From Methanobacteriales archaeon HGW-Methanobacteriales-1 (GTDB lineage Archaea > Methanobacteriota > Methanobacteria > Methanobacteriales > Methanobacteriaceae): DNA of 64,000 nucleotides. The notes under the pieces are model-generated. The model worked only from the letters and a program-made list of their open reading frames with translations, had not been told where the DNA came from and searched no databases. Shown here piece by piece: positions 40,184 to 42,759 of the stretch. Made by a program: the position numbers and the translations under genes. Where the stretch lies: positions 124,001-188,000 of the forward strand of contig PGYO01000002.1 in the NCBI GenBank assembly GCA_002839705.1. Reading direction: 5' to 3'. The stretch's first letter is position 1. Every line of letters starts with the position of its first letter.

Positions 40184-40323
40184 AAATTTCACATTTTTAA
40201 AAATTTTACATTTTTAAATCTAACATATAATATATTTTTTAGAGATTTTAATTTTTGCTAAATTTCTCATTTTGAATTAGTTTTGATTATTTTAAATTTC
40301 CATTTTAAATTTAAAAGTAAAAC

Positions 40324-40351
40324 TTTATATATTTAAAGGTTACTATATATT
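40324..40351 (+). promoter_or_regulatory. TATA-like promoter for the Cys-peptide cluster
   Basis: TTTATATA (40324-40331) and a second TATATATT-type run (about 40344-40351) are the only TATA-like boxes on the peptide side of the intergenic region. Initiation about 25 bases downstream would leave a leader of roughly 110-140 bases before the first peptide gene. Confidence 0.45.
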
Positions 40352-40395
40352 AATAGAAATATAACAAAGCGTGGGTGGGAATTTGGATGATTTAA

Positions 40396-40488
40396 TTGAA
40401 ATGGGGAAAAACAATTGAAAGTGTAATGTGTGTTCTGAAACCGGTTGATAATAAAAAATTGATATTTAATAAATTGGAGGGGAAATAA
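40396..40488 (+). CDS. Possible 30-codon leader ORF overlapping the first peptide gene
   Basis: TTG at 40396 follows GGATGAT (40385-40391) and opens a 30-codon frame (an internal ATG lies at 40426). Its TAA shares a base with the ATG of the next gene (TAATG at 40486-40490), an arrangement typical of translational coupling. The product has one Cys and no resemblance to the peptides. It may be a leader, a fourth peptide or chance. Confidence 0.3.
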   Translation: MKWGKTIESVMCVLKPVDNKKLIFNKLEGK

Positions 40489-40631
40489 TGATTGAAAATG
40501 ATGTTACTAGAAAAGGTGTTTGTCAGAAGGAAATTGAAGCTAATTCTGGTGTGACAACTTCTAATTGGGCCTGTGATCGTACTGATTGTCCATCTTATGG
40601 TAAATGGTACTGTCCATTTACGGGATGGTAA
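40488..40631 (+). CDS. Four-Cys peptide 1 (47 aa), exported-peptide cluster
   Basis: A 47-residue peptide with an excellent GGAGGGG ribosome site. Cys are C12, C29, C34 and C42. The C-terminal 21 residues are WACDRTDCPSYGKWYC plus PFTGW: aromatic and Cys-rich, quite unlike the polar, charged N-terminal ~26 residues. This leader/core split is typical of ribosomally made modified peptides or bacteriocins. It lacks a hydrophobic signal peptide and a double-Gly site. It is the first of three tandem peptide genes before an ABC exporter. Strong resemblance to peptide 3. Function inferred. Confidence 0.75.
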   Translation: MIENDVTRKGVCQKEIEANSGVTTSNWACDRTDCPSYGKWYCPFTGW

Positions 40632-40678
40632 TAAACTAAAATAAAATATTTTGTTTATTTATATTTGAGGTGTTTTTT

Positions 40679-40834
40679 ATGGTTGATGTGCTTGGAATTG
40701 GTGAATTGAGTAAAGTTGAAAGTAAAAGGACTAATTCTGGCCCTGTACTTGTTTACTGTGACGAAACTTGCGTTTCTTATGATAATTGTTTTTTCAAGCT
40801 TTTTTCGAATGGTATTTGTCCTTTAGCCATCTAA
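40679..40834 (+). CDS. Four-Cys peptide 2 (51 aa), exported-peptide cluster
   Basis: A 51-residue peptide preceded by TGAGGTG. Cys are C27, C31, C37 and C47. The C-terminal part VYCDETCVSYDNCFF shares the C-x(3,4)-C-x2-Y pattern with peptides 1 and 3, but W-Y-C is replaced by CFF and the tail is hydrophobic (KLFSNGICPLAI). An NSG lies shortly before the first Cys, as in peptide 1. It starts 47 bases after peptide 1 and has its own ribosome site. It could be the second component of a two- or three-peptide set. Confidence 0.7.
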   Translation: MVDVLGIGELSKVESKRTNSGPVLVYCDETCVSYDNCFFKLFSNGICPLAI

Positions 40835-40898
40835 TAGAATAAAACTTGAATTTATTATTTAAAACAATTTCATAATTAAATCAAAAAAGGATGATAAT

Positions 40899-41045
40899 AT
40901 GGATTCTATGATTATAGGGAAAGTAGAAACTCAACAATCTGATTGTAGACTACTAATTCCTTCGGTAGCAGTTAAAGAAGGATGGAAATGTCCAAATACT
41001 AGTTGCTTTGCTTATGGTCAATGGTACTGTATGTATAACTGGTGA
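40899..41045 (+). CDS. Four-Cys peptide 3 (48 aa), exported-peptide cluster
   Basis: A 48-residue peptide preceded by GGATGAT. Cys are C16, C31, C36 and C44. The C-terminal region reads GWKCPNTSCFAYGQWYC then MYNW, aligning with peptide 1 as W-x-C-x4-C-x2-Y-G-x-W-Y-C-x(3,4)-W. The N-terminal 27 residues differ, so selection acts on the C-terminus. It lies 64 bases after peptide 2 and 49 bases before the ABC exporter. No signal peptide. Confidence 0.75.
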   Translation: MDSMIIGKVETQQSDCRLLIPSVAVKEGWKCPNTSCFAYGQWYCMYNW

Positions 41046-41094: not shown

Positions 41095-42759
41095 ATGGAA
41101 ATATTAATGAAAAACATGGTAAAAGAGAGTTTAATTAAAGAAAGTTTCAGATTTTTCTTTAATAAATTTATAAAACAACATATTCTAACATTAATAATTA
41201 TACTTGGTTTAAGCTTTTTTACTTTACTTTTCTCTTTTATCAGCCCATTATTGATAAAGGCCCTGGTTGATAACGTTTTTATTGGAAGAGAACTGGGTTT
41301 ATTTCATTATATCGTCATGGGCATTATTTTAATGTATTTGGTATCTTCAGTTTCTAACTATTTTAATAGCTTTGTAACAGGTAGACTACAATTAGTTTTA
41401 CTAAAAAATGTTTCTGAGAGCTGTTTTGAAGCTGTTCAAAATGCTTCCTTAAAAAGTTCCAGTGAATTTAAAGTTGGAGATTTAATTACTCGTATTATAA
41501 GCAATACTCAAATTGCCATAAACGTACCAGTGCGTCTTATTCCCCAACTTTTTATGAGTATTGTGGGCATATTTGTTCCTTTTGCAATAATGTTTTCTTT
41601 AAATGCTCAATTAGCATTGATAGTCATGAGTCCTGTAATTTTGTTTGTATTATCCTCCAAATTTTTTGGAAAAAGAATGGAAATAATTCAAAAATCATTT
41701 TTAGAAATTAATGCCTCAGCCTATTCTTTCTTAAAGGAAAATTTAGCGATTATTCCCATTATTAAAGTTTTCAATCTTGAAAAATGGTCTCAAAATAGAT
41801 TTAAAAATCAAATGGATGACTATTTTGATATTTCTCTTAACTACACCAAGACTTCCTCCTTAAACTCATCTTTAGCATCCCTTATTTTTGCAGTTCCCAC
41901 AGTTTTACTAATTATTTTTGGTGGATACATGGTTATTGATGGCAGTTTAAGTCTAGGATCATTCACCGCTTTCATTTCATATGTGTCTCTATTTTTCTCT
42001 CCAATTTCTCAACTTTCCACTCTCTGGACATCCTATAAAAGTGCCCTACCTGCCTTTGATAGAGTAAAAGAATTGTTTGACATGGAATCTGATGATAATG
42101 GGTCCCATGAGCTAAAAATTTCCAATGGAGAAATAAAATTAAAGAATGTTTCCTTTTCTTATGATAATAGGCCTATTATTAATGATTTCAATGCTACCTT
42201 GGTCAAAGGGTTGAATTACATTGTGGGTGACAATGGAACCGGAAAAAGTACCATTCTCAAATTAATCTGTTCACTTTACCCTATGGATGGTGGAAATATC
42301 CAAATTGATGGGCAAGACATTAAAGAAATAAAAAAAGACTCTTTAATCCATAATATTTCTATGATATTTTCAGACCCATTTCTATTTGATGGTTCTATTT
42401 ATGATAACATTAAAATAGGTAATTTAGGAGCATCTAAAGAGGAAATTATCCAGGTTGCAAAAATGGTTAAAATTCATGATTTTATTGAAAAAACGTCTGA
42501 AGGATATAATACCCAAGTAGGAGAAGATGGAATGTCACTTTCCAGCGGAGAAAAACAGAAAATTGCACTGGCCCGGGCAGTTTTAAAGGATTCACCCATT
42601 ATTCTTTTGGATGAAGTAACTAAATCCATAGATGCTGATTCCAGAGAGGCCATTAATGAAGTCATTAATTCCCTAAAAAATGAAAAAACAATGGTTATTG
42701 TGACCCATAATGCCCATGAAATCCATGAAGAAGGTCACGTTGTATATATGGAAAAATAA
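41095..42759 (+). CDS. ABC exporter (fused permease-ATPase) of the peptide cluster
   Basis: A 554-residue half-transporter working as a dimer. About six membrane helices fill residues 25-300, followed by an ATPase domain. Walker A is GDNGTGKST near 378, the signature is LSSGEKQKIALARA near 481 (LSSGE rather than LSGGQ), Walker B is IILLDE near 502 and the H-loop is VTHNAHE. There is no N-terminal C39 peptidase, so any leader must be removed elsewhere or kept. It directly follows three small Cys peptides on the same strand with no other gene between, so it probably exports them. No obvious ribosome site at the first ATG; ATG at 41107 is possible. Confidence 0.88.
   Translation: MEILMKNMVKESLIKESFRFFFNKFIKQHILTLIIILGLSFFTLLFSFISPLLIKALVDNVFIGRELGLFHYIVMGIILMYLVSSVSNYFNSFVTGRLQLVLLKNVSESCFEAVQNASLKSSSEFKVGDLITRIISNTQIAINVPVRLIPQLFMSIVGIFVPFAIMFSLNAQLALIVMSPVILFVLSSKFFGKRMEIIQKSFLEINASAYSFLKENLAIIPIIKVFNLEKWSQNRFKNQMDDYFDISLNYTKTSSLNSSLASLIFAVPTVLLIIFGGYMVIDGSLSLGSFTAFISYVSLFFSPISQLSTLWTSYKSALPAFDRVKELFDMESDDNGSHELKISNGEIKLKNVSFSYDNRPIINDFNATLVKGLNYIVGDNGTGKSTILKLICSLYPMDGGNIQIDGQDIKEIKKDSLIHNISMIFSDPFLFDGSIYDNIKIGNLGASKEEIIQVAKMVKIHDFIEKTSEGYNTQVGEDGMSLSSGEKQKIALARAVLKDSPIILLDEVTKSIDADSREAINEVINSLKNEKTMVIVTHNAHEIHEEGHVVYMEK

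What the first reader, a model, noticed from the sequence alone, without database searches (positions are those of the whole stretch)
40488..41045. Shared C-terminal core W-x-C-x4-C-x2-Y-G-x-W-Y-C in peptides 1 and 3
Peptides 1 and 3 differ over the first 26-28 residues but align over the last 20-21 through W-x-C-x4-C-x2-Y-G-x-W-Y-C-x(3,4)-W. Conservation of Cys and aromatics against a free N-terminus points to a leader plus functional core. Three Cys in the core and one in the leader is odd for simple disulfides and could suggest dimers, a metal site or thioether links.
Basis: seen in the sequence. Interest (0 to 1): 0.75.

Follow-up and report, generated by a model that had tools for sequence, protein, structure and literature searches.

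The report
Exported cysteine-rich peptides of methanogens
A methane-producing archaeon carries tandem genes for tiny cysteine- and tryptophan-rich peptides next to their probable export pump, and the same peptide core is nearly unchanged in methanogens of another phylum, so these are probably secreted signal or antagonist peptides of a family with no match in the protein-family libraries searched.

Summary
In detail: peptides 1 and 3 share W-x-C-x4-C-x2-Y-G-x-W-Y-C-x(3,4)-W well beyond chance (0 of 20,000 shuffles). It belongs to a real gene family. Homologues occur in a second Methanobacterium-group genome and six Methanomicrobiales genomes. The core differs from peptide 1 at 1 of 16 residues although 10 codons changed silently (Methanoregula), so it is coding and strongly constrained. 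The two other exporters there, and relatives in Methanobacteriaceae, belong to radical-SAM peptide clusters with other Cys-rich precursors. Their CcpM-like maturase is absent from all peptide-bearing genomes. Best reading: a secreted-peptide system (Cys/aromatic peptide plus dedicated RiPP-type exporter) without a dedicated radical-SAM maturase, acting outside the cell as a signal or bacteriocin-like antagonist. Secretion, processing, Cys state and activity are inferred. Thioether links are not supported; disulfides or a metal site remain open. Peptide 2 is not demonstrably homologous.

The parts
40316..40340 (+). Putative archaeal TATA/BRE region of the operon (TTTATATATTTAAAG), conserved in the second genome
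   Evidence: Seen in sequence; conserved in the alignment with G135; not tested experimentally
40488..40631 (+). Peptide 1 (47 aa), W-type: leader Cys12 in C-Q-K-x-x-E, core WACDRTDCPSYGKWYCPFTGW
   Evidence: ORF with SD; homologues in 8 genomes incl. this one; core 10 synonymous: 1 nonsynonymous codon differences vs Methanoregula
40679..40834 (+). Peptide 2 (51 aa), Cys-rich, same operon, no demonstrable homology to P1/P3; absent from G135
   Evidence: ORF with SD; shuffles not significant; DNA alignment
40899..41045 (+). Peptide 3 (48 aa), W-type core WKCPNTSCFAYGQWYCMYNW with a different leader
   Evidence: its 3' end is shared with the second peptide of G135
41095..42759 (+). ABC exporter (ABC_membrane + ABC_tran, 554 aa, no C39 peptidase domain), probable export pump of the peptides
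   Evidence: Pfam/NCBIfam; orthologues adjacent to the peptide in five Methanomicrobiales genomes; phylogeny

Best explanation
The locus is a small secreted-peptide operon: one to three genes for 46-52-residue Cys/aromatic-rich peptides with a dedicated ABC exporter. Steps shown: the W-type peptides are real, constrained coding genes; the family spans two archaeal phyla of methanogens; it sits next to orthologous exporters; those exporters belong to the clade that serves radical-SAM peptide (RiPP) clusters in relatives; the CcpM-like RiPP maturase is missing from all peptide-bearing genomes. Steps inferred: the peptide is exported by this pump, the N-terminal part serves as recognition segment and may be trimmed by an unlinked protease, the Cys are unlinked in the cell and form disulfides or hold a metal outside, and the near-invariant core binds a conserved partner in other methanogens or syntrophs, as a pheromone or a narrow-spectrum antagonist.
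For: Core conserved across phyla with synonymous turnover: P1 vs Methanoregula 5 codons same, 10 silent, 1 replaced. SD-like sequences before the peptide starts. Exporter orthologues directly beside the peptide in L063, L064, L065, L067 and L069 and in the window; in G135 the peptide contig ends at the exporter start, and the exporter resumes at another contig end. In Methanomicrobiales, exporter orthologues in 7 of 232 genomes, 5 of them peptide-positive; only one further genome (G346) has a core-bearing ORF. The other two exporters (G313, G325), and G137 in Methanobacteriaceae, lie in [Cys-rich short ORF - CcpM-like radical SAM - second SPASM protein - exporter] clusters. Exporter tree: W-type exporters fall in both phylum lineages, each near radical-SAM-type exporters. 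CcpM-like maturase absent from peptide-positive genomes, only weak generic hits. G000's one SPASM hit is TIGR04083, also present in peptide-negative G134.
Against: No direct evidence of secretion, processing or activity. No C39 peptidase domain, no immunity or receptor gene recognised. Two genomes carry an extra copy away from any exporter (L062, L068); G346 has a core without the leader or the exporter; the G139 linked locus looks decayed (exporter split, leader truncated). Strong core conservation is unusual for a bacteriocin under an arms race. Non-SPASM radical SAM or other trans-acting modifiers were not excluded.
Confidence: 0.55

Rival explanations
1. A true RiPP whose maturase is encoded elsewhere: an unlinked enzyme (for example the methanogen radical SAM protein TIGR04083, or a non-SPASM enzyme) installs thioether or cyclophane links among the Cys, Trp and Tyr of the core before export.
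For: The exporter clade serves radical-SAM RiPP clusters. A TIGR04083-type orthologue is in every peptide-bearing genome checked.
Against: TIGR04083 is also in peptide-negative G134; G000 carries two matches above cut-off to TIGR04165 (the NCBIfam peptide family I recall as its target), and the one read is unlike the W-type peptides. The CcpM-like maturase is absent. The precursors in maturase clusters have dense CxxC-type cores, not this core.
Confidence: 0.2
2. A metal-handling peptide: four Cys (one in the leader, three in the core) bind Zn, Cu, Ni or an Fe-S centre, and the ABC protein exports the loaded peptide (metallophore or detoxification).
For: Four Cys in copies with an intact leader; spacing C-x4-C-x7-C invariant in 12 sequences. 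An anaerobic habitat disfavours simple disulfides (general knowledge).
Against: No metal-uptake, regulator or metallochaperone gene recognised beside the window peptides; spacing is not a classical zinc or Fe-S knuckle; no His in the core; AF2 gives no fold.
Confidence: 0.12
3. Intracellular small proteins (regulatory or subunit-like) whose neighbourhood with an ABC transporter is incidental.
For: Unlinked copies exist in G331 and G139 (L062, L068) and a core-only copy in G346.
Against: Linkage to orthologous exporters recurs in two phyla while other neighbours change; the peptide is in 5 of 7 exporter-bearing genomes versus 1 of 225 others in the order.
Confidence: 0.1

Closest known systems
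Radical-SAM RiPP clusters with CcpM/AlbA-like maturases (sactipeptide/ranthipeptide type) in methanogens
   Same: Orthologous ABC exporter; short Cys-rich ORF in the same operon
   Different: No radical SAM gene beside the peptides and no CcpM-like maturase in the peptide-bearing genomes; the core motif is unrelated to the CxxC-dense cores of those precursors
Unmodified or disulfide (class II-type) bacteriocins / peptide pheromones with ABC export
   Same: Tandem small peptide genes plus an exporter; leader-like N-terminus and conserved core
   Different: No double-glycine leader motif, no C39 peptidase domain in the exporter, no immunity gene recognised, no activity known; host is an archaeon
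Archaeocins (halocins, sulfolobicins)
   Same: Would be small secreted peptides of archaea
   Different: A review describes them from haloarchaea and Sulfolobus (PMC4609331); no sequence relation was tested here
TIGR04083/TIGR04165 methanogen radical SAM and Cys-rich peptide families
   Same: Short Cys peptide in methanogens; both families present in this genome
   Different: TIGR04165 (e.g. MKCENLSQVCPECGCKDKRI...) is unlike the W-type peptides, which gave no NCBIfam hit

Membership tests
Radical-SAM RiPP (sactipeptide/ranthipeptide) | Radical SAM/SPASM maturase encoded with the precursor | tested here: not met
   No such gene beside the peptides in the window and none seen in the ORF lists of the related loci (by eye); CcpM-like maturase absent genome-wide from peptide-bearing genomes
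Radical-SAM RiPP (sactipeptide/ranthipeptide) | Thioether crosslinks in the mature peptide | not testable with these tools
   Needs mass spectrometry
Radical-SAM RiPP (sactipeptide/ranthipeptide) | Exporter of the RiPP-exporter clade | tested here: met
   Exporter orthologues within radical-SAM clusters; tree
Class II-type bacteriocin / peptide pheromone | Small peptide gene with dedicated ABC exporter | tested here: met
   Window plus five Methanomicrobiales loci
Class II-type bacteriocin / peptide pheromone | Double-glycine leader and C39 peptidase domain in the exporter | tested here: not met
   Exporter has only ABC_membrane and ABC_tran; no GG motif before the core in P1 or P3
Class II-type bacteriocin / peptide pheromone | Secretion and biological activity | not testable with these tools
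TIGR04165 Cys-rich methanogen peptide | Match to the NCBIfam model | tested here: not met
   No NCBIfam hit for P1, P2, P3 at E up to 1

The most novel reading that the evidence does not exclude
A previously undescribed family of secreted peptides (signal or antagonist) shared by methanogens of two phyla, with a core nearly frozen in sequence and exported by a pump of the clade that serves radical-SAM peptide clusters; a candidate peptide communication or antagonism system of methanogens.
Probability: 0.4. Interest if true: 0.75.

Novelty: new variant of a known kind. Interest (0 to 1): 0.55.

Why it matters
Little is known about peptide signals or antagonists in methanogens. A 16-residue motif kept across two phyla, with a dedicated exporter, gives a synthesisable peptide whose effect on methanogens and syntrophic partners can be tested directly. 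It also shows RiPP-type exporters associated with peptides that have no dedicated radical-SAM maturase.

Tried and rejected
Pfam and NCBIfam scans of the three peptides: no hit. Viral contigs: no relative by protein patterns, exporter patterns or DNA pattern. Wider search: only the known genomes in 392 drawn Halobacteriota and 151 Methanobacteriota. Weak hits (E above 0.002) were dropped: short, often with stops or inside long unrelated ORFs. AlphaFold2 of the peptide alignment: mean pLDDT 48, not used further, no fold search. Upstream mini-ORF as a fourth peptide: rejected, frame broken and no similarity. Peptide 2 as homologue: not supported. TIGR04083 as specific maturase: not specific. One search used a wrong motif filter and was repeated. 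Literature: no paper found in the held library describing this peptide; most subscription papers are not held.

Full report
What is there. The window lies in a Methanobacteriaceae genome (G000, contig C2). The family name is inferred from the named relative of the same genus, L033, titled Methanobacteriaceae archaeon. Between a metallophosphoesterase gene on the other strand and a ferredoxin-like gene lie three short + strand ORFs and an ABC exporter, all in one direction. P1 and P3 share the reported core; the match is far beyond shuffles. P2 is Cys-rich but not demonstrably related. All three have Shine-Dalgarno-like sequences.

Relatives. A profile of P1 and P3 found two copies in a second genome of the genus (G135) and none in 136 other family members at convincing scores. 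A pattern scan over the species-representative collection returned only that genome, a Methanoregula MAG and an uncultured Methanomicrobiales MAG as relatives. A search of 232 Methanomicrobiales genomes then gave G138, G139 (2 copies), G331 (2 copies), G332, G333 and a core-only copy in G346. Draws of 392 Halobacteriota and 151 Methanobacteriota genomes added nothing.

Conservation. C-x4-C-x2-Y-G-x-W-[YW]-C and the last Trp are invariant. P1 and the Methanoregula core have 5 identical codons, 10 silent and 1 replacement difference: purifying selection on the protein. Leaders in Methanomicrobiales are also related (MC[QLEI][KQ]xGES[VIL]...), and the leader Cys with following K/Q and E is shared with P1. 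Leader differences there are about as often replacing as silent, so the leader is less constrained than the core. Within the genus the exporter is 97% identical while P1 and its G135 counterpart are 74% identical, and the second G135 peptide joins a P1-like 5' part to a P3-like 3' end, with P2 missing: local recombination is the likely cause.

Exporter. The 554-aa protein has the ABC transmembrane and ATPase domains and no C39 domain; its relatives of known structure include SAV1866, the TM_0288 exporter half and peptide exporters such as the ABC-type bacteriocin transporter. Orthologues (39-44% identity) stand beside the peptide in L063, L064, L065, L067 and L069. In Methanomicrobiales, orthologues occur in only 7 of 232 genomes: the five linked ones, plus G313 and G325. 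Those two, and G137 (60% identity, Methanobacteriaceae), carry a short Cys-rich ORF, a CcpM-like radical SAM enzyme, a second SPASM protein and the exporter in a row. Several further Methanobacteriaceae exporters sit beside AlbA-like radical SAM genes. The tree puts the W-type exporters in two separate lineages that follow the phyla (the support joining the window exporter with G137 is moderate, 80/84). So the exporter clade is RiPP-associated and the cargo differs. Whether the peptide gene moved between lineages or is ancestral cannot be told.

Maturation. The CcpM-like maturase model finds full-length genes only in G137, G313 and G325; in peptide-bearing genomes it is absent or gives only weak generic hits. 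The only SPASM radical SAM found in G000 is TIGR04083, which also occurs in peptide-negative G134; the genome also has two TIGR04165 matches, and the one read is unlike the W-type peptides. Dedicated thioether chemistry is therefore not supported, though a trans-acting enzyme is not excluded.

Mechanism. Most likely the peptides are exported and act outside the cell; the recurring linkage is the main evidence. Near-invariance of the core suggests a conserved partner, which fits a signal or a narrow antagonist better than a fast-evolving toxin. Which of the two cannot be decided here. The Cys state is open: four Cys in the full peptide allow two disulfides; three remain if the leader is removed.

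Novelty. I found no description of the family in the libraries or papers searched. As a kind, a small peptide with a dedicated ABC exporter is known; the family, its hosts and the pairing of a RiPP-type exporter with a peptide without a dedicated maturase are new to me.

Noticed in passing
L101:5382-10004, L161:10166-14827, L162:3435-7934: Conserved cluster of Cys-rich short ORF, CcpM-like radical SAM enzyme, second SPASM protein and exporter in methanogens of two phyla: a candidate uncharacterised archaeal RiPP system.
   Followed up: partly
L105:3212-7944, L107:178-5026: Short ORFs MNPEMNSTPWCFACAGCFVLPPG... and MDPKIDGGIECIVCVWCLFAPG... near AlbA-like radical SAM genes, an ABC-2-like pair and a related exporter in Methanobacteriaceae.
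   Followed up: no
L069:7221-7805; L066:5901-7150: TATA-binding protein genes lie just upstream of the exporter in G138 and near the core-only copy in G346 (two TBP genes; Pfam confirmed).
   Followed up: partly
window 40488-41045 vs L033:4677-5011: The second G135 peptide looks like a chimera of a P1-type 5' part and the P3 3' end, with P2 absent, suggesting recombination between tandem peptide genes.
   Followed up: partly
L067:9524-11621: In G139 the linked locus looks decayed: exporter split into two ORFs and peptide leader truncated by an upstream stop, while an orphan intact copy exists elsewhere (L068).
   Followed up: partly
window 40339-40488: Well conserved 5' stretch upstream of P1 (GCGTGGGTGGGAATTTGGATG...) with a broken mini-ORF; could be a regulatory leader.
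   Followed up: partly
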